NCBI RefSeq assembly: GCF_037975245.1 | Contig: NC_092576.1 | Location: forward strand, 23,164,611 to 23,228,610 | DNA: 64,000 bases | Source: Apostichopus japonicus | Lineage: Eukaryota; Echinodermata; Holothuroidea; Aspidochirotida; Stichopodidae | Direction: 5' to 3' | The notes under the pieces: generated by a model | The model's database searches: none | Seen by the model: the letters and a program-made list of their open reading frames with translations, nothing else | Told to the model about the DNA's origin: nothing | Shown here: positions 9,939 through 63,595 of the stretch, in pieces | Layout: every line of letters begins with the position of its first letter | How positions within the stretch are numbered: position 1 is the stretch's first letter | Made by a program: the position numbers and the translations under genes

Positions 9939-21925
<11,987 letters not shown>

Positions 21926-22552
21926 TAAACCGACCAGAAATGTTCGTAGTTGGAAAGTGCGAAAGATGTAACTAACAACCCGATGATGTTTCTATTTTTT
22001 AACGAATTTTTCACTTGCCGCTACGACATTGAATGTGAAGCATATGCAAATACGTCTGCTTTCTATTTGTAACATTAAAAGTATATACGTACGGATGCTT
22101 CTAAAACGTAAGGTAGGACTACTATAATATCCAATCTATATAACTCAATTTCGTTCAATTTAATTTTTTCTCAAACATAAACAAGGTATTACAAGCTGCT
22201 TATGGACACAACATAAACTTAAAATATTTTACAAATAGCTGATAAGTAAGGTACAAATATTTAATTTTGCAAAGATAAGATTGATATGGTACTGAATCTT
22301 CAAGAGATTCGACATTGTGTTCAAAAGTAAGTATACGCTACCCTTAGTCTCAAATTGGGGACATACTTGTGTATTTAACCATTAATCTGTATATAATGTT
22401 TTACACGATGAATGATTATTATTACAAGGAAGCAATCCTGTAACTGTTGTTTATCGAGATCTTTTAAAACTGAATCTGTCTTTTGTATCTTGCGGATAAA
22501 GCTTAATCGAAGCTTGACGTTTGTTTTATTTTCTTGAAAGGGTTTTATCAAG
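21926..22552. promoter_or_regulatory. divergent intergenic region of pair 1 (PK1/NR1)
   Basis: Only 627 bp separates the two opposed start codons, so both promoters and 5' UTRs must overlap or share this space, unless unseen non-coding first exons lie elsewhere. The sequence is AT-rich without a CpG island. I see no TATA box or factor site that I would commit to. Confidence 0.55.
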
Positions 22553-22610
22553 ATGGTTATTGGACGTTTATCAATAGTAGCTCTGTCGACAATCTTGACC
22601 TGCATTGGAG
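22553..22610 (+). CDS. NR1 exon 1: signal peptide
   Basis: ATG at 22553 opens a 58-nt coding exon for MVIGRLSIVALSTILTC and a small C-region, a typical signal peptide, ending at GGAG|GTATGT in phase 1. The NR2 counterpart (53613-53670) is also 58 nt and also ends in phase 1, which supports this start. Confidence 0.72.
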
Positions 22611-25600
22611 GTATGTACATCACGTTGCACGCAAAGCTAGTCCATGCTTATGGTAGCAAATTATGTTCACAAAGTAGAAATTGACATGCCTTGATGATAA
22701 GAATGGTGGTTAATCAGTTACTATCGCTAATTATAAAAAAAAAAGGCACTGACGAACTCCGTTCCAAATTTATTTCATATTGCTTTCAGGTGTGGAATTA
22801 GTGTAGCCTGTGGACTTGTGATCCAACTTGTCTGTGATATATTTACTGTATGTAGGAATTATTATGTATTTGGTGGTGACGTCTTTAGCCTTGACAATGG
22901 CGTGTATACTGGTTGATATTAACGAAATGTTCCTCGAGACGGTTTAGTATAAATAGCTTATCGATTTGATGGTGGTTTTGTCCTCAAGTGGGTCTTAGCT
23001 AACTTTCGTCATGTACTTCTAAAGAACTTATCCTTTTGAAATGATTATCCATATGGATGCCTTAACTTCAGAAATGCAGTTAATGAACAACTTGTAATTT
23101 ATATTAATCATCAGTGTAGGTATGGTGTTCCTCAGCGAACCTGATATACAGTTATCATAAAAGATTTTTTTACCTATGATTTAACCGATTCCCTTCAAAA
23201 ACAACCTTTCCCCAAAATGTTGTTTATATTTTCATTTATTCTTTTGTCGAATTCTTTTAAACTGAGACCGATTATTATCATAAGGATTACTAGATTGCAT
23301 GTCATAATCGTATTATTAAAACATGTCAAAACCTATTTGTCGAGTAGGGCTTGGTTTGTTTAACTAATACTCGAGAAAGGTGTCGTGGGATTTTCGTAAC
23401 CGCTATGCGTGGGAATGAGTAAATCTCGTCACGTTAACAGTCTAAGCAAACAAAACTATTTGCCATGGTACATAAATATTCTTTTATGAAGATGTTCTGC
23501 CAATGGACAACGTTTCCAGCTTTTTGGACATGTATCATTCCAAAGTCTGAAAAATGTGCCGAAAATTTAGGTTGAACTTACAACTTGTCAACACTTTCAT
23601 CGTTGTAGCATAATATTTGTATTCCGCAGCTAATGACAATAGCTATACAGAATGTGAAGTTGAACAATACCTTTATCTGGGAATGAATGGCACTGTAGAA
23701 TGCCTTGGGACTGATGCTGAGAATATTGTCTGGTACAACACATCAAACTATGTGGGGAAAAGTCCTGTTGCTTCTCGTATTGGCAAAAATGACAGAAGTG
23801 GAAAAAATAATCCGTCTGATGAATTTTACATTGATGGAAAAGGTTCCTTAGCCATCAAAAATGTCAGTATACAGCATGAAGGAGACTTTCTGGTGACGAG
23901 AATAAATATATCAACATCTGCAGAAGATATTTGTTGTAGAAGTGTAAGGACTATCGGTAAGTCGATATTAACCTTATGCCTCTGCCAGTTATCAGACAGA
24001 TTTGAACATATGTTTTAATTTGTAATTTCAAAATTTGCAACACAACGTAGTTAATGAATGGGCCATTCGTAAAGAATGAACCCATACGCAAACATCAATA
24101 CAATGAATTGGTATATGTACATCATTCCTTCCAAAATAGGAAAGCAGATTTGTTTGCCTATTATAAAGCTAAACTACTTATATTAATCATTTACTGCATA
24201 TATAACGTAAACTGTTTACACTTCAATCAATGTAATTACATCGTTTAATTTTGAACAAAGCAATACGTTCTTGTAATATAACAATTCAAAAATTCCACCC
24301 GTCTTGACCTTTTTGCAGCCAAGCCAAATCCTCCTTATCCTGTTATTGAAGGCTGTGAAGAACAGGGCAAACTCTGTCATCTGAGGATAGAAAGATTTTC
24401 ACAGTTGAGCTGTATTGTAAGGAATAGCAGGCCTTCGATCAGTCCTTACTGGGCCATCAGACGCGCTCGAGGAGATGAAATTATAACGTCTACAACGAAA
24501 ACTTCAATTCATGGAGTATTTTACACTTCAAGAACAAATACAACAAACCTATTAGAAAAATTAACACCAGTGTTGTCACTTCTCGTTTGTAAGACCGACC
24601 ATCTCCCATCCCTTCTTAACAAATACACTTCACTAGTATTGGTTGAAGCTCATAGTAACTTTTATAGCGATAACATAGATCAATATCTTAAGAAAGTGCG
24701 TATAGAAATGAATTCAAAGCTAAACATCAAATGTACGTATAGTGATTTTAACATCGTTTTATGGAAACGGAAATTTAATGATGATACGAATTCACAAACG
24801 CTTTCAGCAGTTCTTCGCTTGGATACAAACCAAACTGTAACTTATCAAGATAGGTTTGAAGTAGACGAAGACGGTACGTTGACTAAGGAATTCACTTTAC
24901 CAACGGATGAAGGCATCTATCACTGCCTGTTTACTAGTGAAAGAACAGACGAGATGAACGCATATCAAGTTTCAGTTTATGGTACGTTAACTGTCATATG
25001 AGAAGGAGGGTTTGAGTATTTGAGTATCGTATGCCAATACCTATCATATTTCATTTATGTTTGAGTGCAATGTTTTATACAGTTTCAGAAAACGTTTTAT
25101 TTCTAGTCACCAAGATTGTGACAAGCAAAATAAAAAAAAATTAGTACATTTTTAGACGCAGGAACTAAAGTATCACATTGTGACAACCTTTGGCAATGTA
25201 GTTTCTGTTGGATGGTATTCTGTGAAGAGAGAGAGAAGTTATGTGACAACTGAACCTGACAACTTTGGTTTGTGCAAGTTAGCATTATAGCAATTTAGCA
25301 TTATATATTTAAATCATGTTCTATACTTGACTATAGTGTTTGCTAGCATAACATACAGTTTAAAGTGGATAACGCTTCTCGTAAACAGATCGGGTTCATA
25401 TTGTGAATGTAAACCAGCCAGTGGTGTAGCATTTTTTATTCCCTACCCACAATTGCGACCTTTTGTTAAAAGAAAACTGCGGAACCATAACCTGTATTGT
25501 ACAAAACTTCCAATGGTTACCTACTATCTATTATCAGGAAGTGAAACCTGTTTCAAAACTACCTGTTACGACAGGTAATAAACATATAGATGCTGGTTTC

Positions 25601-28600
25601 GGGATAAATAAATCTTATACCAGTTGGAATTAGGATGGACATGTTGCTACCTGTTTGGAATGAGTTGGGCCTTTTAACACGCTCCAGCAGGAGTTTTCTC
25701 CTTGAAACAAATACAACTATTTCTGACATTTATCTATAGAAAAGTCAAATCTGACAAAGCTAGGAAACATTTATTAAGTGTTATCATCGTTAGCAATATT
25801 GTATCGTAAACATGTAAACATGCATTGCATATATGTATGATGTTATAACAGTATGTGACAACTGGCAATTTTCTTCATTCGCAGTAAAACCAGACCCACC
25901 ATATTTAGTCGTATCAGGTTGCAATCATCAACAGTACTGTGTTCTCTCTGTGCAAAGTGACGATAACTTGACATGCATGGTATACGGAATACGCCCCGAA
26001 GTTCAACTAGAGTGGCAGGTTTTGAGTAAAGGTTCATCTGTCTCGATCGATCAGCCGCAGACAAGAACTGTACAAAGAAAGGATACTTTCGATGTATTTT
26101 TGACGTCTACCGTTAGCTCCATAACAGACACCGAACAGAGAGTAACGGCAGAATGTCGGGTAGTAGGCGAATATGCAGACGTAATGGATCTATCAGTAAA
26201 ATTGGATCTCCTAATAACATACGGTATACCCTCGCTGATAAGTTATTGATACATTTTTGAACCCATTCAGTAGTTTAAAGCTGATTGATATAGGACTTAC
26301 AAGTAACATAAATTTTTCAATTATTCATTTTTTATTATTTGATATGATATGATGTGATGTGATGTGTTGTGTTGTGCTGTACTGTGTTTTGTTTTGTTGT
26401 GATGTGATGTGATCTCATCTGATCTGATACGATATCAGATAAATCCAAAGTATCTTCAAACCCAGCCTGCAGTTAATTATTAATTGACAATCTTACAAAA
26501 TCTCTCAAATATTATTCAAAGCACGATATCGTATGACATGATTTCCAAAAGCTGCTAGATACGGTAGCAATGGAACCTGAATTGGCGATTACGAGATGAT
26601 ATCATCGGATTTAGGAAATTGCGGTCCCTCACATATACTGGTCATATTAATTTGAAACACGTGACAAATCAAGTGGATCACTTTAACTTGAGTGGTCGGG
26701 TCAATATAAGACATATTTATGGGAAATGATGCATTAAATTGTGCCAATAATAGCCCAACAGTAATTTAAAAAAACTTTCCAAAATATGAAAGATTAGTTG
26801 AGGTTCATTGACTCGTAAATTAAAGTCATATATATGAGATTTTTAAACAGTGTGCCGTTGTTGTCTATTGTCTTTCTCAGATACCGCTGAAGGACACCAG
26901 GTCAACTATATGTGGTTGTTGCTGCTCATCGTTCCTGTAGTTATTATCCTTATACTAACGGTGATATGCATCATAATTGCAATGAAACGTAAGAAAATAC
27001 TTCCCAGATTATCGAATCTAACCCAACGAGTCCAATATTCTAACTTGATAACGCATAAACAAATCAACTTCGACGAAGCGAAGCTAGTCAATCATATCTT
27101 AAGCGCTCTGTGAAATATGTTTCAAAATATGTTGTATATAATCTTAATATAATAGACATATCATAAAACAGGTAGAAACAACATACACAGCTGGTAGCGA
27201 TTCCTCGTTGGCATACCACGAGACCACATTGTGCTGTGCTTTCATTAATTCCCATCCTAATACTGCAATTCTAGCTCGATTGATTACCATGACTACATAG
27301 CAAATAGCTCGTGATGTTGGCAACTTGGATTGACTTTTATACCCTTAAGATAATTAATATAGTAACATTATATTTACATAGGTGATGTTCTGAATGCATC
27401 AAATATTGTTGGACATTGAGAGCAATGCTCTCTTTTGCTAATTCATCCAAATAATGAACACAGTACACATCCTTCAATTGACTTAACAGGCATACGGAAG
27501 AGAAAAAGAGAACACAAAGTTCAGTCAGAAGAAGTATCAATTAATTATCCAGGAAAATTCCGAATAAGCATCTCTCATGCCAGTGGAACCGAACAAGAGG
27601 TAGCAAAACTATCTAAGTTAAAACAATCAGCTTTTATATCATACAATTTATAATGAATGATACATTTCCATTGAGCGCTATCGTACCTAATGAGTTGATA
27701 TCGTTGCTCTAGACCTGTCAAAGTAAAACAGCCAAAAACTGAACTACACACAACGTCTGTGGTCACAATGTCATTAGAATTAAGCTGTCTTCACGAACCG
27801 TCATAACGATATGTGTCCATAACCGTAATTGCTCTGCGTGTATATATCGTCTTCAATTTGAATCCATCGGAATATACTTTAATTCATTATTGCTCATAGC
27901 TTCCTATCATTTTCTCTCAATCTCAGAATACGCCTATGATTTCGTTATCTCCTACAACAGAAGGTAAGAACATGAACTCCACCTGAACTAAAGCCAGGGT
28001 TTTAGTCGATTCCAACAAATCCGAGTTTGGTTTGAGTCTCGACCGAGTCCGAACAGAGTCCATCCTATGTTAAAAGGGACATTAGAAGTGAAGTTTAAAG
28101 CAATGGTCAGGTCAATATGTCAACTCGAGATGGTCAAAGTTAATTGGTTATTTACATTTATCAACTTCTCATTGGAAATTGAATTTCTTATGAAACAAAC
28201 CATTCATAGAGACATATGTTATTTGCATCAAACGGTTTTATAAGCATCACACGGTCTAGTTGCTATTGTACTTACTGTTTGAGCATTTCATATCCTTACA
28301 TTTTAAGTCAGGGCACTGCGGTCAATGCGGTAAAGTGTTTAACATGATTGAACATCCAACGTGAAACTTGTTTACATTAAAATGGGTAAAGACGGTATGC
28401 TAAAACCGAGACTGTAACACTACATTGATCTCTCCAAATGTTTCTTTCACTAAATGATGATATTTAATAAGATGGACCATTTATTTTTTAGCCTTTTTGA
28501 ATGTGAATCCGCAAGGAAGGCGACATGCGTTCAAGTTTTTTTTCATATCCACAGTTCACAGTTGATTGTCATTATCTTTAACTGGAGTCACGTGAAGTAT

Positions 28601-31600
28601 ATATTCCCTTATTACGTGAAATCATAATCAAACATGATCACAATATCGTTGTGAGGGAACTTGAGTTAGAGAGTAGATAATGTCAATAAGTTTTTGTGGC
28701 CAGACTGTATCTTGGGTGATTTTCTTAAAAATTTAAGTTTGAATTACTTTTACGCACTGAACGCATTTTTGTTATTTTGAAGGGACGTTCTTTCCGGTGA
28801 TGGGAGGTGCTGATAAAACAAACCTATTCATTGAAGTCTTAAGAAAACGATATCATCTTCTTTACAACGCTGTCCAACCCATTCCGTTTATTAAAGACAG
28901 GATGTATTGTGTCAACAAGTTGTTTGTCGAGGGCGGTATAGACCTCCTGGACTTAGATATGTATGAGTCCGGGGAAGAGAAGTGGCGTAAGCTGAAATCA
29001 TACAACTCTATATTAAACGACAAGAGAGAAGAATCTAAGAGATTTATAATTGAAGGTGATCCAGGGTACGGAAAGTCGACCCTAGCACTCCAGTTGGCAT
29101 ATGACTGGTGCAACAAGATTGCAAATTCACCTTTGCGAGACACAAACATTGTTTTATTTATACGATTAAGACATATCACAGGCATGAAATCGATTTTTGA
29201 CTCCATTTCACAAATCTTCCTGTCCAAGTACTCCTCCTGGACAGAAGCTGATGTAAAAGAGATACTATTTAACTGCATTTCCGGTGTAATCATCCTCGAT
29301 GGCTATGACGAGTACGCGGATCGTAATGATCCAAACACAGATATAGCAAACATTATAAAGAAAGAGCTATTCGAAGGGTTTGACGTCATTGTGACTACAC
29401 GGTCGTCATATCTCCCAAAGGATCTTGCTCCGAAAACACAACGACTTCGGTTGACAGGATTCACCGAAGAAGCGCGAGCTTCGTACATAGAAAAGGCTGT
29501 CACAAACAACACGAATGATGTTCGTGAAATCAAACTTCTACTCAAGGAAAATCCAATCCTTCGTGATCTGTGTCAAGTACCTCTGTTCTTTGTCATCTTC
29601 GCTCACATGACTCACGAAAAGAAGTCATTCCGTGATTTCTCTTCCGTGACGAGTTTCTTTCGCTACATGATATCCTGCTTCCACAGTCACATGAGAAACA
29701 AACTTGTGGGTGATTACGACAACGAATGGAAAATGTACGAGAAAGAACACAGTGAACTAGACACAATAGCTTTTGAAGGGTTGAGTGGAGATAAGCAACA
29801 ACTTTCGTGGAAGAAACAGTATATGTGCCAACGACTGGGTGAGGAGTTTTACAACATTTATCTCAAGATAGGTATTTTGGTTGAAGAGGTTTATCTCGAT
29901 GATGCAGACAAACCTGGTACATCTGACCACATTCAATACCAGACGGACGTCAGATTTTACCACAAATTATTCGGTGAGTGGTACGCAGCTCATTATCTTG
30001 CCAGCGTCGTTACTAGGGAAGACCAGGAAACCAACCATGAATTGTTCGACCTGATAAACGTGGCTGATCTTCAGTACGTTTACCGGTTCGCTTGCGGAAT
30101 AAACAAAGATGCCGCGAAGAATATCATCGAATACTTGCAGGAACAGAGACGTGACAACAAATTTGCGACTTTATGCATTTTGGAGAGAGACGGTAAAGTT
30201 GATAACATCCTTGAGATTGTAGCGAAGCTTGTATCAGCGAACATCTATATGCAGGAAAGAGATAGCAGGGTACTACAGAGATCTACCATTCAAGTGTTGG
30301 AGATTGCATCCAAGCACCAGGTAAAACTAGTGTAACATATATAAACCAGTTGAAAGCAGTTTGGGAGTTAAACTCATTCTTATTAAGTAATATATTACAT
30401 AGACTAAAGCAGATTGGGAATTTATCTCATTATCGTTAAATAATATATTATACGGAGCTCTATTTTGAAGATAAGTGTGCAATGTTACGTCAAGTTGTTA
30501 CCTACTGCCTATACTCATAGCTAGTATAGTAACTACTGGTGCCACTTGTAACATATGTTACCGTGTTACGAACATAAACAGTAATTACTGATGCACGGTT
30601 GAGCGACATGAACAGTAGTAACCTGTGTTACAATTGGCACCAATTCGTCATGCCGAGAACGAAAAAAGGCCATGTTAATGTATATACACATGCCTACTTA
30701 CTACTACTACTAATGGTGATCTGCCTTAAGGCAGGTCTCTCACCAAACACAAAATCATAAGAACCGCAGAACCGCTCTTCTGCATTCCTCTTCATAGTGA
30801 AATAATTTCTGACATCTCTGATATCATCCATCAACATTATTCTCTTTCTCCCTCTTGGTCGCTTCCCGTTCATTCTTCCTTCAAGCACATCTTTCAGTAG
30901 TCCGTCATGTCTCAAGATGTGCCCACCTTTTCTTTCTCAGATTAATAGTTCCTCCCAGCCTGCGGACCTCACCAACCCACTGTAGAACTTCCTCATTTGT
31001 GACCCTGTCTGACCATTTTATGTTCTCAGACTTTCTCCATAGCCATATCTCCAATGCGCATTCTATTGTTGTCCTCTTTCCTTAGTGTCCAGGTTTCTGA
31101 GCCACACAGGAATACACTCCACACAAAACATTTCATTAGTCTCTTCTTTAATTGTAACTCAAGACTAGCAGTAAAAAGAGAGTTGTGTAGTTTGAAAGTT
31201 TCCTTGGCCATTGCCACTTTTGCTCTGATTTCGGTTTCACAATATCCATCTTCCGCCAATAGACTACCAAGATATTTTAACTGTCTGACCTGTTCAAGTT
31301 CCTTCCCCTCTATCTCTATATGAACTCTCCTTTGTTCCCTTCCAATCTTCATGACTTTCGTTTTCTTGATGTTAATCCTCATCCCATACTGGTTGACAAC
31401 TCTGTTGGTATTCTCCATCATACGTTGAAGTCCAGCCTCCGTGCTTGCTAACATTGCCTGGTCATCTGCAAAACGTACCGACTTTATCCATTGTCCTCCA
31501 ACTTATATTCCTTCTTGTATTTCATCAAGTGCGTCAGTTATCATGGCTTCTGCGTAGATGTTAAAAAGGACTGGAGACATAAGACATCCTTGTCTCACTC

Positions 31601-34348
31601 CTCTCCCTATTGTGGCTGATTTTGTTTTGCCCATGAGAGTTCTTACTACCGCTGTCTGTTTCATGTACAACTCGGCGATGAGCTTTCTGTCCCTCCAGTC
31701 TATACCAATCTTTTTCAGAATCTCCATTAACTTGTTCCAGTTTACCCGGTCAAAGGCCTACTTATAGCATAACAAATTAGATACGCCTCATTTTCGAATC
31801 GCGTATCAAAGAACTCGCACTCAATGATTGGTACAGAAACTGCTGTTCATACCCCACAACCGAGCATCAGTTACTACTGCTTTGTGTTCGAAGCATGTGT
31901 CAACAAATATATGACCTAGTAAACTAAAGAAAGCAAAGTCCATATAATGTATGCGGATACACTGCAATGTGATTTATGTAAACGATGGTGTTATCATTTC
32001 TCAATAACATAGAAACCCGTCTCACGTGTGACATTTGTTGATCTGGTAAAAGGAGTTGATCAACAAAACCATCTGCTGCTACTTCACTCTGACTTGCACG
32101 TACCAGTCCTAAGCACACTGCAAAACCTAGAGATCAGTGACAGAGGGAGGGAGTTCACAGAAGAAGAAGTCTCGGGTTTACTTGATTACTCTTCAAATTG
32201 TGAAAGCCTGGAAGAGTTATGGTTAGTCAATTGTTATTAGTAACGAAGATGTGTTAATACGTCTACGCAATCAATAAGCTTTCACCCGGTGCAGAATCTA
32301 TGCTTGTTGTTGTCATTGTAATATTTAATTGACTGTGAGTGCCAATTGTCGATAACCGTACTAACATTTGATTAAGTGATGTTTTCTTCAATGCAGGTTC
32401 AGAAGTTGCATTCTTCCTCAACAAGTACAGTGTGAGAACATAACGCGGATACTGCCAGAAAGAAAGCTGCGAGGTACATGTAAACTATACACAGATATCA
32501 CTGATACTTTCAGCGAGAACCTGTTGTCACTGTTCATTAAAATGAAAGGCTTTAAAGCGAAATTGATTGGATGCGAAAACAGAAAGTGCGCCATTATAAC
32601 ATATTACAAATATTTGAAGTAAATTCGCTATGGCAAAAGAATATAAAAAATGGTGATCAATATTTTGAAAGACTTCAAATGTCCTGTGTATGAGATCTAA
32701 CCGAAAGAACTACTCACTTAAAAGACTTACGAGGTAGTAAATAGCAAGTTTAATTCACTTAAGTTTTTAAGCTTATGTTTGTGTTAAATTTTGTTAATCC
32801 GTTTCTTTACAGTTCGCTGGAATATAGGAACATACCTTAATGTCAAAAGCGGTTGTTGGAAGGTGAGAATTTTGCATACTAATACTTAACTACTAATATA
32901 TTTTAGCAATGGAACCTTCAAAGAGTATACGTCCATCGCGGAAGTGAACGTTATTTTGTTTCTATATTTTCTACTATGAATATTCGTATCATGATATGTT
33001 TCTAGACGAATTAACTGTATTCAGATCAGGAGTGAAGCAACTATAAACATCGTCATTTATGTAATTAATTATAAAATAACAACCACAGACTTACAATAAC
33101 TCGACCATTATTAATTATAATTATACAGACGTATCCATTAGGGAAATGATCGCTAAAGGGTCGCAAAAGTAACAACCGTTCATTCAGTCTGTTTTATGTT
33201 AGGAGGAATAACAATCCCTCATGCCAAAGACTACGATCCATTGCGATTTTCTATTGTCCGTAAAAATGTTGGTAAAACGTATGATTACGTGTGCGTTTCA
33301 TGTTCTCTTTTAGGGAGAGAACAACAAGGATATGAATAAAACTGAACATTTGTTGTTGGTAAGTTTCTATAATAAATTTGTATGAAAGTATATTTTACAA
33401 GAAAGCGAGCTTTCGAGGGAAACCGTTTGACGTTTTTATTGCCCACAATTAAGACATATATTAAACTTGAGAATCAGATATTGCAGTATTAATTGTATTA
33501 TTATAACATGCTACCATTGAAATATCACAGATATATATCCGTGAGATTAGCAGCTAGCAGCAAAGGCACATCATATTACAAAGAAAATACCTATAACAAA
33601 CAAGCCCCGGTAGCTCGTTAAGATAAGTCAAACAAAGCTCATTGTGTATTCAATTTGCTTATATACTAACCAGAATGTAAGTTATTTACCCCACAGTTTG
33701 CCTGGTATTGAAAACTAAACGAAAATGGCCAATCTAAAGTGTGAATTTACACTAATCGTGTTTCCTTTACTGTTTTTATGAAGACCTTTTAATATTTTGT
33801 TTTGTAGGTGAATCAGCTCCGTGGAAAGTACAGGTAAATACTTTTTATTGCTCGAATCTCCGATTTCATCCACCGAACCGAACAAACATACAAGTTGATT
33901 TTTTCTTTGCAATATTGAAATGTAATGCAGAGAAACCGAAAGCACAAATACATCTTTTGTTTCGACACAACATTGTCGGAACATCATATACAGTTGAGAT
34001 TAGCTCTCTTAAAAAGCCTGACGTCGGAAATATATACATCCTTCCGTCCGTCTATCGATCCATCGACCCATCCCTCCTTCGATCCATCCCTCCATCCATT
34101 CATACGTCTGAACCTTCACTTTTTTCGAAGTGGTATACGTTCTATACTTTCACGTTATCCATGCTTGAAATTATTGCAGTCGAATTTGTTGCTTTATCAT
34201 GTGATAACTCATTTGAGTGTAAGCACGGCATTAATTAAAAATTGTAACTTACACTCTCCGAATTCAAATGTTATGTAATCTTCTTTACAGGGACACACTC
34301 TGGCAACGTACAAGGAATCCAGCTTACACCGAGAACGCCAGGACATAG
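22553..34348 (+). CDS. NR1: Ig-transmembrane-NACHT-LRR receptor
   Basis: Exons: 22553-22610 (signal peptide), 23630-23956 (Ig1), 24319-24981 (two Ig-like domains), 25885-26223 (Ig4), 26881-26988 (TM), 27490-27533 (basic linker), 27927-27963, 28783-30320 (NACHT), 32013-32221, 32397-32473, 32813-32862, 33314-33358 and 33808-33833 (LRR-like C-terminus), 34291-34348 (terminal, frame less certain). Phases are consistent throughout and give about 1190 residues. An AATAAA at 34364-34369 follows the stop. The order signal peptide, Ig, TM, NACHT, LRR predicts a cell-surface receptor with a cytosolic STAND NTPase, unlike ordinary cytosolic NLRs. It starts 627 bp from PK1 on the opposite strand. The intron after the NACHT exon holds a reverse transcriptase relic. 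The downstream paralogue NR2 matches exon by exon. Confidence 0.82.
23630..26223 (+). CDS. NR1 Ig-like ectodomain exons
   Basis: Three exons with phase-1 borders. 23630-23956: a V-type-like domain with G-T-V-E-C, V-W-Y-N-T-S and Q-H-E-G-D-F at the F strand; the second Cys of a canonical Ig is not in the usual place. 24319-24981 (221 codons): two domains in one exon; the first begins after K-P-N-P-P-Y-P and holds L-S-C-I-V...L-L-V-C-K, the second has I-K-C-T-Y, V-L-W-K-R and D-E-G-I-Y-H-C. 25885-26223: begins K-P-D-P-P-Y-L and has L-T-C-M-V, L-E-W-Q-V and V-T-A-E-C. Several N-glycosylation sequons. Ligand unknown. Confidence 0.78.
26333..26440. repeat. TGATG/TGTTG pentanucleotide-like repeat
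   Basis: An impure array of GATAT, GATGT, GTTGT and GATCT units in the NR1 intron before the TM exon. Confidence 0.8.
26881..27963 (+). CDS. NR1 transmembrane and juxtamembrane exons
   Basis: 26881-26988 encodes a short stalk and a strong TM helix (WLLLLIVPVVIILILTVICI) followed by M-K-R. 27490-27533 encodes a highly basic stretch (R-I-R-K-R-K-R-E-H-K); 27927-27963 a short Ser/Thr-rich linker. Phases 1-1, 1-0 and 0-1 lead into the NACHT exon. The three exons have direct counterparts in NR2 at 57620-57745, 58112-58173 and 58285-58324. Confidence 0.72.
28783..30320 (+). CDS. NR1 NACHT NTPase exon
   Basis: One long exon of about 512 codons. Walker A is G-D-P-G-Y-G-K-S-T (29055-29081). Walker B is V-I-I-L-D-G-Y-D-E-Y (29286-29315), the L-x-L-D-G-x-D-E form typical of NACHT proteins. 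Sensor 1 lies in V-I-V-T-T-R-S, and a conserved Pro in C-Q-V-P-L-F-F marks the winged-helix/GxP region. The helical part extends to S-K-H-Q before the donor CAG|GTAAAA. If that donor were skipped the frame would stop after three more codons. All motifs needed for nucleotide binding and hydrolysis appear intact. Placed after a TM helix, the domain should face the cytosol. Confidence 0.9.
30695..31765 (-). mobile_element. degraded non-LTR retrotransposon (reverse transcriptase fragment)
   Basis: Minus-strand translation shows the RT core: A-F-D-R-V-N-W (motif A), G-V-R-Q-G-C-L-M-S-P-V-L-F-N-I-Y, F-A-D-D (catalytic motif) and L-K-Y-L-G-S, then a C-terminal segment with G-K-R-P-R-G-R-K-R. The copy starts abruptly at motif A (5' truncated), has an in-frame stop before F-A-D-D and more stops after about 31030, and ends in a short TAG-type tail at 30697-30713. 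It lies antisense in the intron between the NACHT exon and the first LRR exon of NR1. Clade not assigned; inactive. Confidence 0.8.
32013..34348 (+). CDS. NR1 C-terminal LRR-like exons
   Basis: 32013-32221 (209 nt) carries leucine-rich-repeat-like sequence with L-x-x-L-x-I and C-E-S-L-E-E-L-W; 32397-32473 continues with F-R-S-C-I-L-P. Then come 32813-32862, 33314-33358, 33808-33833 and 34291-34348. The first of these has exactly the same length and phase (0 to 2) as 61699-61907 in NR2. Repeats are few and degenerate, so an NLR-type ligand or autoinhibitory LRR is likely but short. The last exon can be read in two frames; the one kept follows phase 2. Confidence 0.6.
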
Positions 34349-34794
34349 AAGAATGTAACCGTAAATAAATTACAGCAGAATATGCATCATTACGTCTCAA
34401 CGTGACATAGAGTGTACTTTACCATACTCAAATATACTAATGCCATTGTTACTTTAATTTGGACCGCAACTTGGATCATCAGTTCCACAGCTGTGATTAA
34501 GTATATAGTTACAAAGTAGTCTAGAGTGTTGAAATTTGAGATATTTATTCGCCAAAACTGAAAGACTAGAGTTTACCAGTAGAAATGTAGTTCCAAGTGT
34601 GTCGTTATTGAATCCCAGTGCACGCTAATTGTTGTATTTGTTTTCGGGTCCATCTACTGTTTCGTTTAGTCTATAGTGTCATTTTTATCGCATCTTTTGA
34701 TTTTGTTTTGCAATGCCACGGACAAGCACATTCATTTAACGAAACAGATGAGTGGTACGTAGGGAAAGGAGCTGAGGGTGGGATGACTAACAGT

Positions 34795-35255
34795 GTTTCT
34801 TATTCCTGTCTTTACGATAGTAAAGTGACACCTGCATCGTGCAGTTATCTCAATCAGATTCCCATACATGGTCGGTTCATTGTTCATGACGGTACGAGCT
34901 TTTGTTTTGCATTGTCTTTCAAGAGCATGCTTCACGTACTATCGGCACGTAGGAAATATAAAGCCGTCCTAACAGGAGCAAAGCTGTGTCCACACGTAGT
35001 TGTACTTTATGTACCTGGGTAGGGGTGACGAAGAATAGTTTCGTTTTACAGTCTATACAATAGTAAAGCTTCACCTGAAACGTGCAGCTATTTCACTCAG
35101 ATTGCAAAACATGCTCGTACCATTGTTCATGACGGTAAAAGCTTTTGTGAGAGCTTTCAAGAGCCTACTTCACGTACTATCAACACGTAGGAAATGTGAA
35201 GTATTTATAACAGAAGCAAAGCTGTTTCCACACTTAGAGGTGCTTAATAGGCTAA
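34795..35255. repeat. diverged tandem duplication, 243-bp offset
   Basis: The segment around TTGTTCATGACGGTA (34880) recurs at 35123 with matching flanks: ATAGTAAAG, CACCTG, CGTGCAG, TTTCAAGAGC, CTTCACGTACTATC, CACGTAGGAAAT and AAGCTGT-TCCACAC. Open frames in both units are short and not conserved, so I read this as non-coding. Confidence 0.6.
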
Positions 35256-40600: not shown

Positions 40601-43600
40601 CTAAGATGAAATCTTTTTCACTTTTCTCTTTGTGTTCTTTTTCTTTCCCTTGAAAGGCACATTTTCCCATTTCAAGGCACAATCGGAAATCAAAATAAAA
40701 CATATCATATGTGTACATGTTTTAACAAAAATGATCATGTACAGTGTGTGTTATTCGTGGACTCGAAAAGTTCAAATACCACACTTAGCTGATAATTAAT
40801 ACTACATGAAACATAACACTACTCACTGCTACAATTATGCTTAATTGATGATATGTGTTTTAATATCCAACTTAAAAACAACGAAATTCACGATTTTACC
40901 TTTTGATATTATCTTGCATATGACTAGCGCTACTGACCACACGTCACTGGCCTGCGTGTATTCACTCCTCTGCAGAGATTCGGGAGCAAGAATTTCCATT
41001 GAAATATCGGATTCCTAAAAATAAGAAGACAACATTAAATATTTATTTGTAAGATCTTTAACTATCGGTAAACTATTAATACAAGGGAAACCCAAGTTAC
41101 CATTATCATGAGTTCTATTATTTAATGGATGTGAAAATGCAGCCCAAGGTGAAATAAATAATTTAATACGAATAGCTTGTATTTTGAAGGACAATATGCG
41201 TTATTCTAAGGATCAATTTTAAGCAGTTGGGAATCCTTGTTAATACTGGATAGTCAAGTTAATGTTTAAGTCAAAACATATTGTTTCATGTTGTTATTTT
41301 TAAGAAATTGTTATGTATTCTTATTTTTGAGAAATTGTCATGTGTTGTTGTTTTTTCAGAAATTGCTATGGTAGGTCATCTGGTCTAGGCTTCAATCTAC
41401 TTCATTGATTGAGAGATCTCTCGTCATATATTTTATGTCGATGACTAGAACCATAAATACGTTCTACATACAGTGTTTCACCAAATACATACCTTATTCT
41501 TTATGGTTTTAACTCTGTGTGTGGCATCTTCGGCCAAGCAAAAGTCATATAACTTGCAAATTCTCGTCCCAGATACTAATACTTTCTTCATTGTTAGACC
41601 AGGATGAAGGAACTGGAAAAGTAGTGTATAAGTATAACTTGCTTGAAAAGTAACGGACAATCGACAGCATATTAACATTGCGTAGCTACCAGTTGTTTCT
41701 CCGAGTAATCTAAACACATTCGTTGTTCCTTTTTTTCTGCAGTAATCAGCGATTTTGTTCTGCACGTACATCATTAAAAGTGATACACTGCTAATCGGTT
41801 TGAAGAAAAATAATGCGATTTCCATTTATCCGATTAAAGAATGTCAAGCTATCTTACCAAACCAATTGAGAAGTACTATTTCTAACATTGCAATTGATCA
41901 TACAACAGCTCATTTAGATTACAATCCAAGTGCTAAACCAGTTTAGTTGTTTATTAAACCAATTTAATGAGTTTATAATGGATGTACCATCGTCAAAATA
42001 TTATTTTTAGTGTAACATGACATAATAAGACGGTCAATACTTATAAACCAATTACTGTTGACTTCCAGCTAGCTGGGGCAATTTCCTTATGCTAATACCT
42101 CTCTGAGATGTACTCCTATATCATGCTTCAAAGCACTCGTATTGACAGGTACAAACAGTTCCTAACATTTATCTGATAGAAACAAAATATTCATACTGCT
42201 TTATACTGACATTGCGAGTGCTCTGAAGCGGGGCATGACAGTAAAGTATAGACAAAGATCTCTCAACAGTGTATAACCCCTTTCTTATTTGTTATTAGTT
42301 TTATGATTCACCATTCACATTGTTGACGTCACGTTTTGTATGTACATATTTCTTAATGTGAAAATGTAAGGTTGCTATGTGTAGAAATTTTCAAGCAAAA
42401 TAATCAATGCACAGTTTATGAAACATTAAATGATTAGAATGTTAAAATCTGTCATTATGCGTATATTTGGCTTTTTGTTTATTGCAGTCGTTAACAGTTG
42501 CCGATATTGTGACCTTCAATAAAATATTCAATGGTACCTTTTGTCATATTTTTAATAGTTTAGCGCTCGTTTAGTCCATGAACTACAAGAATAAAACCGA
42601 TCAGTTTTGATGATTATAATTGTAACGGCTGTTATTATGCGTATAATTCGCATTTTGCTAATTGCAGTCGTTCACCATCGCCGATATCGTGTCCTTCTAT
42701 GAAATATTCAATGGCTCATTTTGTTTTGTTTTAAATAGTTCAGCAGTTCAGCATAGTTGTCCACGGACTACAAGCATAAAACTAATCTTTTTTGCTTTGC
42801 AGAACAGTCCCGTCACAGATGCTTCGAATATCTAATGATATTTTAACAGTCAATATTGAGACAACTTACCCCGTATGATTGGATAAACTCCACTCCTTCT
42901 AGAACATCCATGACGTAAGATCTAAGCATCGAATCATGTGAAATTATAGGATCGATAAATATCGATTCTCGCTGATGTTGTTTGGGATCTATCACGGTCT
43001 CCAGTGTCTCGCACGTTACGTGTTCATTTACTAAGAACATATTTGCTGTGCGGAAAGAATTGGGTTTGTGTAGGAAAGTTCAAACATATTTATATTATCA
43101 TGGGGATGGCGAAGAAGGCATCGTTAAGATGGAAGGCATACATTTTCATTTAATTTAAAAAAAGGTGTATTTATAGTTTAAAGATGGTTCGAAACATGCA
43201 CACTTATATGATTGATTTACTAAATATTTACTGGCAATAGGAGTTTCTAGTTGTCTTCGTAGCAGATTTGAGTTAATGTTTAAGCTTCACGAGACTTCTA
43301 GCAGTAAATAAAACGGCAAATCATTTATTAGCATGGGTGACAAAATTAGCTGTATACGAAAAGTATCAAGTTTGCCAACACTTACCTCCATCTATACATA
43401 TACCTTCAATACTAGGGATATTCTTTGATGTTGGTAAGTCCAAAAGACGCTTCACGTACAGGTCCCATTGAAATTCTCCTTTCTCATATAATTCCTCTAT
43501 TACAGACAAATGAAGACACAAGTGAGACTTATTCAAATAACAACGTGATTTATATCATAACAACCAGTATCAGCCGTTTGAAAACACGTCATTAAAACAA

Positions 43601-46600
43601 AAAGTAGTAAATTTGAATGTAAAAATTATAATTTCAACCTCACCTAGATTGAAAGTCATTAAGTTAGCGGATTCCTGTAATACTATTTTCCGAAGAAAGT
43701 CAATAAGCTACCGTTCTAAACTGTTATCCAAACAAAGAATAATTACTATATTAGAAAACAAAATGGTTTTACCTTTTATTGTAGTAAGGACAACACATCT
43801 CTTTCTTTTCGATGAAGACACTGTTCCCATCCATCGTGTGTAAACATTTCCTACTTTCATTTCAAGGATAAAGCAAACATCTTTCATTTGGAACAGCCTG
43901 TCATGAGATAAATGGTCCTTTATTGTTGCATAGTAGTGCCCTAAAAGGAAAGATCAAAGACTACAAGAATGTGCAGATTATGGTTTGTTAACATTTTAAT
44001 TCTTCGGAAAACAACTCTTTTTGGTTCTCCTTTTTCCAAAGAAGTTGCTAACCCGTTATTTTTAGCTTCCCGTAAGCACGCTCCATTTCCTTCCAAATTA
44101 AGTAAAGTGAATAGTTGAAACACTCTTACGAACATGATACAATTAATTAGTAATTTACAAATATGTCCTTCACGAACCTGACTACTTACTAACAGTAACA
44201 ATTTTACCGATGTATGAGAAGTACACGGTCGAACTAGAACATCTGCTATGAACGTGTGATATACCTACATGTTGAAAATCGGCAAGGGACGAAACGTTCG
44301 CCGTTACCCTGAGTTCCAATTTGGGGATAGGTATAATTACCGTTTTCCTTCTCTGGAACACCTGAGGACACTGAAGCGGGTGAGTTGTCAGGAATGTTTG
44401 GTAATCTGATACTGCAGGACAAAAAATGAGATAAGCTGGTATAATACGTTTGATGCTTCATTCGTGTTATATAATAACGTCACTTCTCCGTCTGATAAAG
44501 CAATCTTGCAAGCTGTGGTTGGCAAAATAGAGTCTCGACACCCGACTCACACAGAGATTACTACTATAAATCTTGAAGTTATGTAACACTGTAAAACTTG
44601 GATCGTGCTGATAAATCGACAGTGCATGCTACCGGGGTTAAAGTAAGAACACAATAATCTCTGGCAACCGTCTAACCATACTTGATGCATTTGTTGGGAT
44701 TTCACATATTCTTAGTTCTTACTGTAATCCTAATAGCACATGTTACCAATATATCAGCATGAGGTGGTGTTCACTGTGGTACAATGCTTTTACTGTTTAC
44801 AGTTCTTACTGTGTTCTCTGTGTGTATCGGTTCTTCTCTACGAAAATATGTCAATGAAGAAGGTATGCAAAGCTCCATTAAATGACCGGGTTGATAAACG
44901 TGATATCACATATAACAACACCGAAGTTACAATCTTACCTTGGTGGGTTGTATGGACAGACCGTTTCTAGACGAAGTAAAAACACATATAATAAGCTCAT
45001 GTGCAATTAATTACAAACAAGAAACAAAGAGGGAACTTTTATAAATTAAGAAAACTTTATCCAATATCATTTTTAATCAATGCTAGACCATAACGATTCT
45101 TGATTTCAGACACTTTCCTAGTTTTAAGAACAATTACTAATGTATATGTATAATCATATAATTAATTCTTAGAAAAATAATGGTGTCGAAGTCAGCTTCG
45201 TTTGTTAACTCAATTTTAACATCAGCGAATGTCGACTTACTTTGGAAGGTGTCGTCAGCTTTCTCAACAAGTGATCTGAAGAGACACAAACATATATTTT
45301 GTCATCACGAGTTGTACTTTTAATGACAGTTAAAGAAGACTTTAGTGGAATATAATGTTTGACATTATGGCCTGGTGCACCTAATACACACAGGGTACAT
45401 CGTAACTACTGTACACCTTTAAGTTTTGTAACAGAATAAAAACTGGATTGTGCTAAAAATCAGTAGCATGTGCTATAAGGTTAACAGTTAAAAGTCGAGG
45501 ATATGTGTAATCCGTACAACTCCAGTTTCATGCATTTGTTGGGATTTTACACATATCCTCATTTTAACGGTAACATCATAGCACATGCTACTGATTTATC
45601 ATATCTATCATCACAATCCAGTATTAACTGCTTTGGCTGAATTTGAGGACGTCAGATGAACTGCGGTGGGCAGCTTTGATTTTCTTTACAAGTGGCAGCT
45701 CGAGAGGTCTTTAGGGAATATTTTGACAGCGAATTTCTGGCGTTTGAAGCCGCATTTACGGAAAGTTGTGCATGGGTGGTGTTGTAGTTATGTAGATTAA
45801 CCATTCCAAGACATGAACATTTTCCATTTCATAACCTCTTTAAGGTAAGGTGAATGTTTGACACCATTATGTGTATTATATTGTACGCCAGACGTTGTTA
45901 TTTTTACTTTAAAATATCATAATGCGTTGTACTCACGATCCCGGTTGATCTGTTGATTAAGAATAGATCAAAGTTAATAATGATATGATTGTTTTATTAC
46001 GCATAGTAACTTAAGATGATTGGATATTTCTTGGTAATTTATTATTTCACTAAGTAACGTTTACTTGAATGTATTTACATCGTATTTTAGATGCAACAGT
46101 TACCTGTTGTAGGTGGATCACACGCTTTACAAGAAATGAGTGTCGCAGATCGCTCGGTTAGTGACAGCTGATTTCTGAAAAGAATAATAACATGTCTTTG
46201 AAACACTGAAATAATTACAGAAAAACATCTATTCAAACGATGCAACAGTCAACTAAAATAAAATATGTCAACAAGTCAATTATCCATTAGTTTTATTACC
46301 CACTACACTATATTGTTTATCCAATTAAAGAAGCTGTAAAACATAAGCGTTACCTCATTATTAATAAAAACTTACGTTTTAACAACGTATCGCGAATAAT
46401 AAGTAATCATTACTAATATAAAAAACGATTTTAAGTGTTCGCTCATAAAACTTGATCGTAGGAACTGCCATTAATATTTTGCTTTGGCTGCTATTCCTTT
46501 AATTTTGCAAGCAATTTCTAATTTGCAAAGTTTCAGGAATACAGCATGTGCTTCGTAATTTGATATGTTTTGAACGTGCATTGCTCTTCTGCTTAATATA

Positions 46601-47362: not shown

Positions 47363-50300
47363 CTTCGCTTGGACTATTTATTCAGTACAAGCGGCTAGCT
47401 ATATGCGGTTTAGTTGGTCCTTAATCCATCTTATCAGTTGCAATATGAACTTCAATTAAGATTGCTTGGTATAATCGCACAGTGTACAATTTACGGAAGA
47501 AAGAAGGGGCCAGGGATGCTAAAGAATAGCAAATATGTAAAGAGAGTCAAATGTTGTACAAGGTTGGCGAGTCAGCACCTCACAGTTTAACACTAACCGC
47601 TTTAAGTATAAGTTGACGTTTATATAACTTACTATGCGTCGAAGCATGGTGCAAGAGTATATGCATAATCATTTATTTACCTGCATGTCGTTTTATGATA
47701 CACCAAATCAATGCAGACAAAGCTGTTGTTAGAACGATCACCAATCCGACAAAGAGAACCAAAGAATATTTTATTTTGATTCTTTCTTCTGTTTAAATAG
47801 AAAATATCAAAAGCAAATAAACCAATTTAGGTTTTAATCAAATGTATCATCTCATTCAGCAGATAATAAGGGTCAGTTGACAATACATTTTTGCTGACCC
47901 AACTTTTAAAACAATTACAGTTTTCAATTTCTCTAAAGACACATTTTACGCAAACAGAAAATATCAGGACAAAGTATAAAGATATGAAGATTAAAATGCG
48001 TTAAGTTTGTTTTCATTTAGTTTAAAATCTTTAAATATTATGGAAGATGTTTACAAATTAGTAATTAAGTTACTGTATGAATCTCAACACAAAGAGGCAA
48101 AGTACCTGTGGGTGTTGTTTTATTCTAAGTGGAAGACCAAATAGCGTGATATTTTTGTCAAATAGTATAATCATATTTCTAACAAAGATAGGCACACCAA
48201 ACCATTACAAAGATAATATGTACACGTTTTATTACCGTTCTTCTCACAGAGTTGTTAATCGTTAATCGTAAGACACAACTGCAAACATTGTAAACTAAGC
48301 GGTGTTTTAGCCAGGTATATCACCTTAACTGGTATGATGACTTCATCTGAAGACATCTTTATGATAATGTTATTTTGTTAAAGTTAAATGATTTCCACTC
48401 GACAAATCTATGCAAATAAGATTCTAATGATGAATTTGAAAGTTTTCAAAATGGAAAAGTAATTGTTGTCTTTACCAGTAACTCGGAAGTATATGTTGGT
48501 GTGTAATTTTCCTGTTGGTAATCCTTCACAGATGCAAGTGATATTTCCACTTCTTCTTTTGAATTGGAGTAGGCCTACTAATGACGATACGGAATCAAAT
48601 GTATCGTCTTTGTGTTTGTTCGTTGAATTCATGTCTATTCTCAAAGGGAGAAGTTCTTCGTTATCTAATAACCACTTGATCGTCACCGCTGGACGTGATT
48701 TGCTAACACGGCACACGATCAGCATGTTTACGAAGTCATTAATGAGAATAGGCTGATCGTTCTTCATCCCGTTAATTGTAAGTTCCACTGTTGGTATTAC
48801 TAAAAAAGATGACCATATGTATTTTGGTGACAGCTATTGTAGAAAGAATACGACGCCTTAGGTATGTTTATATGATAAAATATGACTAAAAACTAAATCA
48901 TAATTGAAACCTTGTTGAAAACTTCTTGGTAAATACCCGAAGTTTACTTTGTTTTTTCGCTAAAAAGTTAACTATTAGTGAGAATTTTTAATTCATATGG
49001 TCGGCCAGAATTCTCAGCTCCAAATATATTATGTGCACTAAATCAGACCACGCTTGGCAAGGGGTGGGCCGAGGTCTACAGCACGGGCCTTAGATCAATA
49101 AAGAAGTCCTTTTTCATAATATACTTGAAAAAAAGGGTACCCTGTTGTTATATTTCTCCCTCCCTCAACTAGCTCTCGCGCTCCACGATTCTAACCATAC
49201 CTCACTGATCTCGTTGCAGACAGGTCCAACTAATGTCTTCCTTACCATAATTCAACGGAAATTGATATAAACGATAACATACGTGTTCATAAATATTGTG
49301 GTGCAGGTTAGTAAATTGAATCACTGTAAAGTGTCCTTTATTACAGGCACACATACTGAGTCTCTGAAAAGAACTGTTTACATACATTACTCTTCGTGGC
49401 TTCTCTGATGTTGAGCTTGGATAACTTTCAAGTAACTATTTTATCATTTTTATTATTTATTCCATTTCCAAGGCACTCTTGATTTACACCTGACGTGACA
49501 TATTCATGATCATACGGTTTCAGTTTCGATGTAAGGGTACTTGGGTTGAGAGAGAATGAAGTGCTTAGTTTCGAGCCCAGGCTGTACTTTGGGGGAATTT
49601 TCCTTACACAAGAACTTGGCTTAAATGACGAATATATAAAACGCTTAGTAAGAAAATTTACAACGCTGTCTTGCAAAAATGCATACATCCTCACCATATG
49701 TAACATAATGTGCCTTGACAGACCTCTCACGTCCTGCAGCACCGCTTTTACTCAGGCAAACGACGCTACCATTCTTATCTTTTGGACGGAATGCCAGGAA
49801 CGAGACCGAATCGTAGGTGTACTCATTGGTAGGACTGCTAAGACTTCGTATAGTAGAATTCGCAATTAATTGATTTGCTGGGACATCGTTAATAAGCCAA
49901 CTTAGTTCATCCACTGGCCTTGCTCCAAATGATGAACATACAGCTGATAGTGTGGCCAACATTTCGACATGGACGACGTTATAACTTTCTTGATTGTTAA
50001 TCAGGAGATGGGTTGTAGGAACAACTGTTAGATAAGTCATGATCATATAACAGGAATGGATTTGGTATATGCCCATTGGTGCAATAAGAAAGCAAACAGT
50101 GTTTATAGAAAAAAAAAATTTCAATCCAATCCCTCGTTTTCTTTCATAATGCAAGATATATTCCAACACTGTAATAACCTACAAATATCCTTGATTCTAA
50201 ACCAAACTAACAGTCTATTATTATCAAATTAGTTTATGACGTCACCAAATGAAACTCTTTAAAATAGGCACTAAACACATATCATTTTTTATGATGTCGT

Positions 50301-53612: not shown

Positions 53613-63595
<9,983 letters not shown>

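What the first reader, a model, noticed from the sequence alone, without database searches (positions are those of the whole stretch)
22553..34348. Cell-surface NLR: signal peptide, Ig domains, TM helix, NACHT and LRR in one gene
NLR proteins are normally cytosolic. Here the intron phases run without a break from a signal-peptide exon through Ig and TM exons to a full NACHT exon and LRR-like exons, and NR2 shows the same order. That would join extracellular recognition directly to a STAND ATPase in one chain.
Basis: partly seen in the sequence, partly recalled or inferred. Interest (0 to 1): 0.92.

Follow-up and report, generated by a model that had tools for sequence, protein, structure and literature searches.

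The report
Sea-cucumber-type membrane NLR with Ig domains
This gene appears to encode a cell-surface receptor whose outside part is built from antibody-like domains and whose inside part is an NLR immune switch; a receptor of this kind was described in a sea cucumber in 2021, but here it belongs to a large gene family and stands back to back with a second surface receptor that carries a probably disabled kinase.

Summary
The main observation holds. The gene at 22553-34348 has a signal-peptide exon, three Ig-bearing exons, a TM exon, two short linker exons and a NACHT exon; the phases fit, and the paralogue at 53613-63571 has the same phases. The window's genome is held. Of 200 NACHT exons scored, 63 have a related Ig exon within 10 kb upstream on the same strand and none in any other configuration within that distance. 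A phase-1/1 TM exon lies between Ig and NACHT in 21 of 22 loci read, against 1 of 22 on the reverse strand. The NACHT exon is a full NLR core, closest to NLRC4. LRRs are not supported. The architecture is published: AjNLRC4 of Apostichopus japonicus (PMC8699970), with similar domain positions. So this is a new member of a known kind. New here: family size, the exon-phase signature, and a head-to-head Ig-TM-pseudokinase gene in both units of the window, a layout that recurs in the genome. The exon plan also suggests that AjNLRC4's second TM, and the 'extracellular NACHT' of AjNLR-new (PMC13133943), are misread topology. No cDNA was seen; the species was not proven.

The parts
22553..22610 (+). 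NR1 E1, signal-peptide exon (MVIGRLSIVALSTILTCIG)
   Evidence: phase 0>1; hydrophobic start
23630..23956 (+). NR1 E2, V-type Ig exon
   Evidence: 43% identity over 82 residues to the NR2 E2 frame; no Pfam hit of its own
24319..24981 (+). NR1 E3, two Ig domains (the first by homology to E4 only)
   Evidence: V-set E 8.2e-6 in second half
25885..26223 (+). NR1 E4, Ig exon (C-type)
   Evidence: C1-set E 0.0075, below cut-off; 150 related places, 150 of 368 candidates scored
26881..26988 (+). NR1 E5, transmembrane exon (best 19-residue hydropathy 3.6)
27490..27599 (+). NR1 E6, basic juxtamembrane linker exon, phase 1>0
   Evidence: exon type seen in other loci; skipped by the best chains and not caught by the pattern in NR1
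27927..27963 (+). NR1 E7, linker exon with NTPM motif, phase 0>1
   Evidence: xxPM exon in 15 of 22 loci
28783..30320 (+). NR1 E8, NACHT-HD1-WHD-HD2 exon
32013..32221 (+). NR1 E9, phase 0>2, no recognised domain
32397..32473 (+). NR1 E10
32813..32862 (+). NR1 E11
33314..33358 (+). NR1 E12
33808..33833 (+). NR1 E13 (phase out differs from NR2 E13; unsure)
34291..34348 (+). NR1 E14 with stop (frame depends on E13)
53613..53670 (+). NR2 E1, signal-peptide exon
53873..54196 (+). NR2 E2, V-set exon
   Evidence: (E 5.6e-7)
55074..55721 (+). NR2 E3, two Ig domains
   Evidence: (V-set E 2.3e-6)
56734..57081 (+). NR2 E4, Ig exon (no Pfam hit of its own; 28% over 92 residues to NR1 E4)
57620..57745 (+). 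NR2 E5, TM exon
58112..58173 (+). NR2 E6, basic linker exon (not caught by the pattern)
58285..58324 (+). NR2 E7, GNPMM linker exon
58950..60469 (+). NR2 E8, NACHT exon
61699..63571 (+). NR2 E9-E13 (61699-61907, 62061-62134, 62520-62587, 62744-62785, 63545-63571); the 3' end was not found in the window
   Evidence: chose another donor for E9 (61861)
19099..21925 (-). Divergent partner 1 (K1): signal peptide + Ig (ORF 21509-21991), Ig (20630-21064), Ig (19868-20215), TM-like stretch in ORF 19102-19410 (hydropathy 2.2)
   Evidence: the gene finder did not recover these exons in unit 1
12728..16235 (-). K1 tyrosine-kinase-like exons (pseudokinase); assumed to be the cytoplasmic part of K1
   Evidence: PK_Tyr_Ser-Thr E 6.1e-22
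47681..51564 (-). Divergent partner 2 (K2): signal peptide + Ig, three further Ig frames, TM exon 47681-47788
40844..43953 (-). K2 tyrosine-kinase-like exons (pseudokinase); assumed to be the cytoplasmic part of K2
   Evidence: E 6.8e-23

Best explanation
NR1 and NR2 are type I membrane receptors of the AjNLRC4 kind. A cleaved signal peptide sends about four Ig domains outside the cell, one TM helix crosses the membrane, a short basic linker (E6-E7) follows, and a complete NACHT-HD1-WHD-HD2 switch of NLRC4 type lies in the cytosol. Shown here, from DNA alone: coding continuity, phases, the NACHT core and part of the Ig domains, and recurrence of the same plan across the genome. Inferred: the Ig array binds microbes or another surface protein; clustering of the ectodomains brings the NACHT modules together at the membrane, and ATP-dependent assembly then recruits effectors. 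For AjNLRC4 the published partners are beta-actin with Arp2/3 (phagocytosis) and caspase-1 with MLKL (lytic death). The head-to-head Ig-TM-pseudokinase gene may be co-expressed and may be a co-receptor; that step is conjecture.
For: Eight exons with one phase pattern in both paralogues. A simple gene finder not told the answer recovers E2, E3, E4, E5 and E8, in phase, in both genes. 63 of 200 NACHT exons have the Ig exon upstream within 10 kb and 0 elsewhere; on C16 37 were observed against a null mean of 0.83 and maximum of 5 in 300 random placements. E3-E4-NACHT order in 44 of 44. TM exon in 21 of 22 loci against 1 of 22 reversed and 0 of 22 upstream; xxPM linker exon in 15 of 22 against 0 and 0; basic linker in 11 of 22 against 0 and 0. 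NLRC4 is the top PDB match, E 5.2e-21, across NACHT to HD2. Positions agree with AjNLRC4: TM 483-503, NACHT 600-757 (PMC8699970 passage); NR2 most hydrophobic stretch 480-498, NACHT about 608-761 (worked out).
Against: No RNA evidence. The 20 fetched loci were chosen because they have an E4-like exon upstream of a NACHT. The patterns for E6 and E7 were chosen after looking, so their counts are not independent; E6 was missed in 11 of 22 (NR1 and NR2 among them) and E7 in 7 of 22. The finder skipped E6 and E7 in both genes and put three weak extra exons into NR2; the best chains used other borders in NR1 and NR2. L028 gave no TM exon, and in L035 the TM exon lies 7 kb from the NACHT. The signal-peptide exon was found in 15 of 22 loci, against 2 of 22 reversed. 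In 19 of 22 loci there is an in-frame Met before the P-loop. 16 of the 63 Ig-NACHT pairs, all on C7, have an Ig match that runs through two to four stops. Signal peptide and TM were judged by hydropathy only. Both AlphaFold models were poor.
Confidence: 0.85

Rival explanations
1. Two neighbouring genes: an Ig-TM receptor with a short tail, followed by a separate cytosolic NACHT gene; the phase fit is accidental or only an occasional read-through splice.
For: TM and NACHT exons would be phase-compatible by chance in about one case of three; 19 of 22 NACHT exons have an in-frame Met before the P-loop; E7 often carries a Met that could start translation.
Against: TM exon in the right phase in 21 of 22 loci, and linker exons recurring with fixed phases; NR2, L026 and L032 have no Met before the P-loop; residues before the first Met of E8 are conserved across loci; 63 Ig-NACHT pairs within 10 kb, all in one orientation; AjNLRC4 is reported as one protein (PMC8699970).
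Confidence: 0.08
2. Several products of one locus: besides the full chain, a short Ig-TM form (stop after E5) or a NACHT form starting in E7, so that membrane and cytosolic forms coexist. This does not exclude the best explanation.
For: E5 of NR2 is open into its intron up to a stop at 57819; recurrent Met in E7.
Against: No RNA evidence either way.
Confidence: 0.25
3. The topology is the reverse, NACHT outside and Ig inside, as claimed for AjNLR-new (PMC13133943).
For: That paper reports surface binding of recombinant NACHT and a TMHMM prediction (passages and section 4).
Against: The N-terminal hydrophobic stretch is a 19-residue signal-peptide-like start coded by its own 58-nt exon in NR1 and NR2; basic residues follow the TM helix in E6, which by the positive-inside rule (recalled) puts the NACHT in the cytosol. 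I did not see the AjNLR-new sequence.
Confidence: 0.05

Closest known systems
AjNLRC4, Apostichopus japonicus (PMC8699970; GenBank MN607598 as given in PMC11932488)
   Same: Ig-like, Ig, TM, NACHT in one chain; similar residue positions (Ig 251-353, TM 483-503, NACHT 600-757); no LRR, no CARD
   Different: Reported with a second TM at 776-795; in NR1 and NR2 the stretch at that place (806-824, 782-800) is the CQVPLFF segment, which aligns with a segment of solved NLRC4.
AjNLR-new, PIK48001.1 (PMC13133943)
   Same: Ig, TM and NACHT in one 1197-residue chain
   Different: Published with Ig inside and NACHT outside; the exon plan here argues for the opposite orientation.
Chiridota heheva NLRs (PMC8913654, passages seen)
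   Same: Holothuroid; 6 of 53 NLRs carry other domains, including the Ig V-set, which was not found in sea-urchin NLRs
   Different: Small repertoire; no TM or gene layout in the passages seen.
Mammalian NLRC4
   Same: NACHT-HD1-WHD-HD2 core, best PDB match
   Different: Cytosolic, CARD at the N-terminus, long LRR (recalled).
Plant paired NLRs and the ZAR1-RKS1 pseudokinase pair (recalled, no call)
   Same: Head-to-head pairing, and an NLR working with a pseudokinase
   Different: Only an analogy: plant proteins of another class; no interaction is shown here.

Membership tests
AjNLRC4-type membrane NLR | Ig ectodomain, TM and NACHT in one coding chain | tested here: met
   from DNA only
AjNLRC4-type membrane NLR | Domain positions along the chain | tested here: met
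   against positions in PMC8699970: NR2 within about 10 residues for TM and NACHT; NR1 TM close, NR1 NACHT about 35 residues later
AjNLRC4-type membrane NLR | Two TM segments, as published | tested here: not met
   (E1-E8): one stretch at 3.6/3.1 in E5; the stretch at the place of the second TM scores 1.4/1.5. I take the published second TM to be a misprediction, so I do not count it as defining
AjNLRC4-type membrane NLR | Direct sequence similarity to AjNLRC4 | not tested
   its sequence was not found in anything I could read
AjNLRC4-type membrane NLR | Surface location, microbe binding, actin binding | not testable with these tools
   needs experiment
NLR (NACHT-LRR) | NACHT with Walker A and B, HD1, WHD (FHxxxxE-like), HD2 | tested here: met
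   (10 of 10 members match NACHT)
NLR (NACHT-LRR) | C-terminal leucine-rich repeats | tested here: not met
   no Pfam hit for the NR1 or NR2 C-terminus; best PDB E 0.42 for NR1, several of the 7 listed being LRR proteins; none in E9. A single weak repeat is not excluded
NLR (NACHT-LRR) | N-terminal death-fold domain (usual, not strictly defining) | tested here: not met
   0 of 63 Ig-NACHT loci have a scored Death exon within 30 kb; 39 of 137 other NACHT loci have one downstream. Only PF00531 was searched (150 of 204 candidates scored); CARD, DED and PYD were not
Active receptor tyrosine kinase (partners K1, K2) | Catalytic Asp of HRD, DFG, VAIK Lys | tested here: not met
   K2 by alignment: HRD reads HPG, DFG reads DFC; K1 the same by eye, and no Lys at the VAIK place by eye in either. 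The fold family PK_Tyr_Ser-Thr is matched by both

The most novel reading that the evidence does not exclude
The unit is a two-receptor system: an Ig-NLR and an Ig-pseudokinase, expressed from a shared divergent promoter, form one surface complex in which the pseudokinase regulates or baits the NACHT switch, an animal membrane counterpart of plant NLR pairs. The layout is found on both sides of the deepest split of the NACHT tree (NR1 and L027; NR2 and L034), so it looks old and kept.
Probability: 0.2. Interest if true: 0.85.

Novelty: new member of a known kind. Interest (0 to 1): 0.5.

Why it matters
It shows that the membrane NLR described from two sea-cucumber genes belongs to a large, old family with a fixed exon plan, more than half of whose found members lie on one chromosome, and it gives a defined neighbour (an Ig-pseudokinase receptor) to test as partner. 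It also gives a reason to recheck two published topologies. It bears on whether an NLR core can be driven by extracellular recognition.

Tried and rejected
Rejected: the LRR part of the claim. Rejected as evidence: exon lengths of E5-E7 differing by multiples of three between close pairs, because the scan that found most of them had imposed the phases. Led nowhere: AlphaFold of E3 (mean pLDDT 36.6) and of the NACHT exon (48.7), so no fold search was run. dN/dS by exon was mixed: NACHT 0.14 to 1.06 in seven pairs; Ig exons, where defined, mostly 0.3 to 0.8, with some at 0 and one at 1.4; no clear sign of diversifying selection. TIR as another tail of the Ig genes: 13 TIR places, none on C16. 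Rfam: no hit. Literature: no listed title or abstract start concerned the pseudokinase pairing or the size and gene layout of an Ig-NACHT family; the library holds open-licence papers only. One search was badly framed and told nothing. One search stopped with a script error and was redone.
Full report
What the sequence shows. Reading the splice sites by eye and checking them by script gives, for the finding's gene (NR1), eight exons from ATG 22553 to 30320: signal peptide, V-type Ig, a double-Ig exon, a fourth Ig, TM, two short linker exons and NACHT. All have AG/GT borders, with phases 0>1, 1>1, 1>1, 1>1, 1>1, 1>0, 0>1, 1>0. NR2 has the same eight exons and phases at 53613-60469. The next four exons also agree in phase and roughly in length (209/209, 77/74, 50/68, 45/42). 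NR1 can be read on to a stop that ends at 34348, by way of an E13 whose phase does not agree with NR2. A simple gene finder that was not told the answer returned E2, E3, E4, E5 and E8 in both genes, in phase, but skipped E6 and E7 in both and added three weak exons in NR2. The best chains, which ran from the E4 donor to the NACHT exon, likewise used other borders for E5 and skipped E6 in NR1 and NR2.

Domains. Pfam gives NACHT at E 4.8e-17 and 5.2e-15 and V-set hits above cut-off in NR1 E3, NR2 E2 and NR2 E3; NR1 E2 and NR2 E4 have no Pfam hit, and NR1 E4 is below its cut-off. These exons are called Ig by homology to their paralogues and by position. A profile of ten NACHT exons (2 from the window, 8 of the 20 fetched loci) has NLRC4 as its best PDB match (E 5.2e-21), over profile positions 73-480 from the P-loop to HD2, with the F-H-K...E motif of the winged helix (motif recalled). 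All 10 members match NACHT. The C-terminal exons have no LRR match.

Recurrence. The window's own genome is held: 671.6 Mb in 35 contigs, the window on C16. Searches with the NR1 and NR2 NACHT exons and the Pfam model scored 200 distinct places; candidates were more numerous (614, 550 and 488), so this is a lower bound. The NR1 E4 exon matched 150 places (150 of 368 candidates scored) and the NR2 E3 exon 103 (150 of 251 scored). Of the 200 NACHT exons 63 have an E4-like exon within 10 kb upstream on the same strand and none has one in the other three configurations; within 20 kb it is 69, and one downstream on the same strand. On C16, 37 were observed against a mean of 0.83 and a maximum of 5 in 300 random placements; on C12, 7 against 0.10 and 1. 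With E3 or E4 within 12 kb the count is 67 of 200; 44 have both, and in 44 of 44 the order is E3, E4, NACHT. NR2 itself is found only through E3. Sixteen of the 63, all on C7, have an Ig match that is read through two to four stops, so they may be broken or spliced differently; 47 remain without them.

Joining TM to NACHT. Twenty of the 31 other loci then known were fetched as 10-kb stretches; they had been picked for having E4 upstream of NACHT. In these and the two window genes (22 in all) a phase-1/1 exon with a strongly hydrophobic stretch lies between E4 and E8 in 21, against 1 on the reverse strand of the same interval and 0 in an interval upstream of E4. The xxPM linker exon (phase 0/1) is found in 15, 0 and 0, and the basic linker exon (1/0) in 11, 0 and 0; all three together in 8, 0 and 0. 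The E6 and E7 patterns were drawn up after one search had shown many of these loci, so they are not an independent test, and the E6 pattern misses NR1 and NR2 themselves. A signal-peptide exon was found in 15 of 22, against 2 of 22 reversed. In NR2, L026 and L032 no Met stands in frame between the NACHT exon's acceptor and the P-loop; in the other 19 of 22 one does (the first script had counted L032 with the others because its P-loop is altered).

Age. A tree of the 22 NACHT exons separates 4 rows with NR2 from 18 with NR1 by a well-supported branch; the root is a midpoint for drawing, and the program warns that several rows have long branches. Both sides have the same exon plan, so it is probably older than that split. 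The Ig exons differ most: mean identity 0.39, 0.32 and 0.42 for E2, E3 and E4 (19, 21 and 20 loci), against 0.50 for E8 (22 loci).

The neighbour. On the minus strand, head to head with each NR gene, stand Ig exons with a signal-peptide-like start, a TM stretch, and then kinase exons. Divergent starts are 627 bp apart in unit 1 (21925 to 22553) and about 2.0 kb in unit 2 (51564 to 53613). Of the seven Ig frames of K1 and K2 scanned, three pass a Pfam Ig cut-off (C2-set_2 in 49648-50178, 48411-48833 and 19868-20215) and four stay below. The kinase exons match PK_Tyr_Ser-Thr at E 6.1e-22 and 6.8e-23, but in K2 HRD reads HPG and DFG reads DFC, and K1 reads the same by eye, so the kinase is probably dead. 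That the Ig-TM and kinase exons are one gene is inferred; in unit 1 the gene finder did not recover the Ig and TM exons in frame. In the genome 16 of 21 matches of the K2 Ig exon have a matching kinase exon within 8 kb downstream on the same strand. Genome-wide, 12 Ig clusters of the NR type have such exons head to head (Ig within 20 kb or kinase within 25 kb); in 10 both the Ig and the kinase exon are seen, and in 5 the NR-type gene has a scored NACHT. Within 20 kb, E4-like exons meet the K2-type Ig exon upstream on the opposite strand in 10 cases and in no other configuration. Against this: when E3 matches are added, 2 clusters also have it upstream on the same strand, and for the kinase exon alone the tally is 11 clusters upstream-opposite against 3 downstream-opposite, 2 downstream-same and 1 upstream-same. 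Of the 63 Ig-NACHT loci only 5 have the K2-type Ig exon and 4 the kinase exon upstream-opposite within 30 kb, so the pairing is recurrent but not general, as far as these queries can see.

What is known. PMC8699970 (abstract, passages, section 35 and the first of two parts of section 38 seen) describes AjNLRC4 of Apostichopus japonicus: Ig-like 31-132, Ig 251-353, TM 483-503, NACHT 600-757, a second TM at 776-795. It is reported on the coelomocyte surface, binding microbes by its Ig part, forming dimers, internalised, its NACHT part binding beta-actin. PMC11932488 (passages) adds caspase-1 activation and MLKL cleavage. PMC8913654 (passages) reports NLRs with Ig V-set in Chiridota heheva, not in sea urchin. 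PMC13228809 (one passage) says that the A. japonicus genome paper listed NLR and tyrosine kinase receptor families among the expanded ones. The window is therefore probably from a sea cucumber, but the species was not proven.

Topology. In the E1-E8 part of NR1 and NR2 the only strongly hydrophobic stretch besides the start is E5 (3.6 and 3.1; the start 1.9 and 1.6). The next is the CQVPLFF segment at 806-824 and 782-800 (1.4 and 1.5), about 20 residues after the NACHT match, just where AjNLRC4's second TM is placed. It aligns with a PLFVVI segment of NLRC4, whose structure is solved. I infer that the second TM is a buried helix, and that the first 'TM' of AjNLR-new (PMC13133943: abstract, passages and section 4) is a signal peptide. 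I did not have either sequence.

Mechanism. Most likely the Ig array senses a microbe or surface partner, clustering drives the NACHT modules together under the membrane, and the assembled NACHT recruits cytoskeletal or cell-death effectors. The plan of the chain is shown from DNA; the signalling is taken from the AjNLRC4 papers (where the 2025 paper has caspase-1 bound by the Ig part, not the NACHT, which does not fit this topology easily); the role of the pseudokinase partner is conjecture.

Noticed in passing
window 31026-31499, minus: Reverse transcriptase fragment (RVT_1 E 2.3e-7) in the NR1 intron between E8 and E9.
   Followed up: no
window 55789-56547: A (TA)65 run and a fold-back repeat with near-identical inverted arms in the NR2 intron between E3 and E4.
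   Followed up: no
window 34612-35317: Tandem partial duplication just downstream of NR1; stretches of the two copies are about 59% alike as protein. Nature unknown.
   Followed up: no
L032 (C16:22840697-22850687): Near-identical copy of NR2 about 0.37 Mb away: exons E2-E4 about 99%, NACHT 95% identical. Its P-loop differs from the family's, so its ATPase may be dead.
   Followed up: partly
C7, 16 places: Ig matches upstream of NACHT exons on C7 run through two to four stops; this branch may have lost or changed its ectodomain.
   Followed up: no
L043: The linker exon E7 lacks one base relative to its close neighbour L044: a broken copy or an assembly error.
   Followed up: no
84 of 151 Ig ectodomain clusters: Ig clusters of the same type with no scored NACHT nearby, also on C11 and C15; they may carry other tails or unscored NACHTs. 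No TIR place lies on C16.
   Followed up: partly
NACHT exons without Ig, many on C12: 39 of 137 NACHT exons without Ig have a Death exon within 30 kb downstream on the same strand, an unusual order for NLRs if it is the same gene.
   Followed up: no
PMC11932488, section 12: Caspase-1 is reported to bind the Ig part of AjNLRC4, which should be outside the cell or in a vesicle: a tension with the published and the present topology.
   Followed up: no
C35 and C29: C35 carries a full-length cox1 match (probably the mitochondrial contig); C29 carries several cox1 fragments.
   Followed up: no
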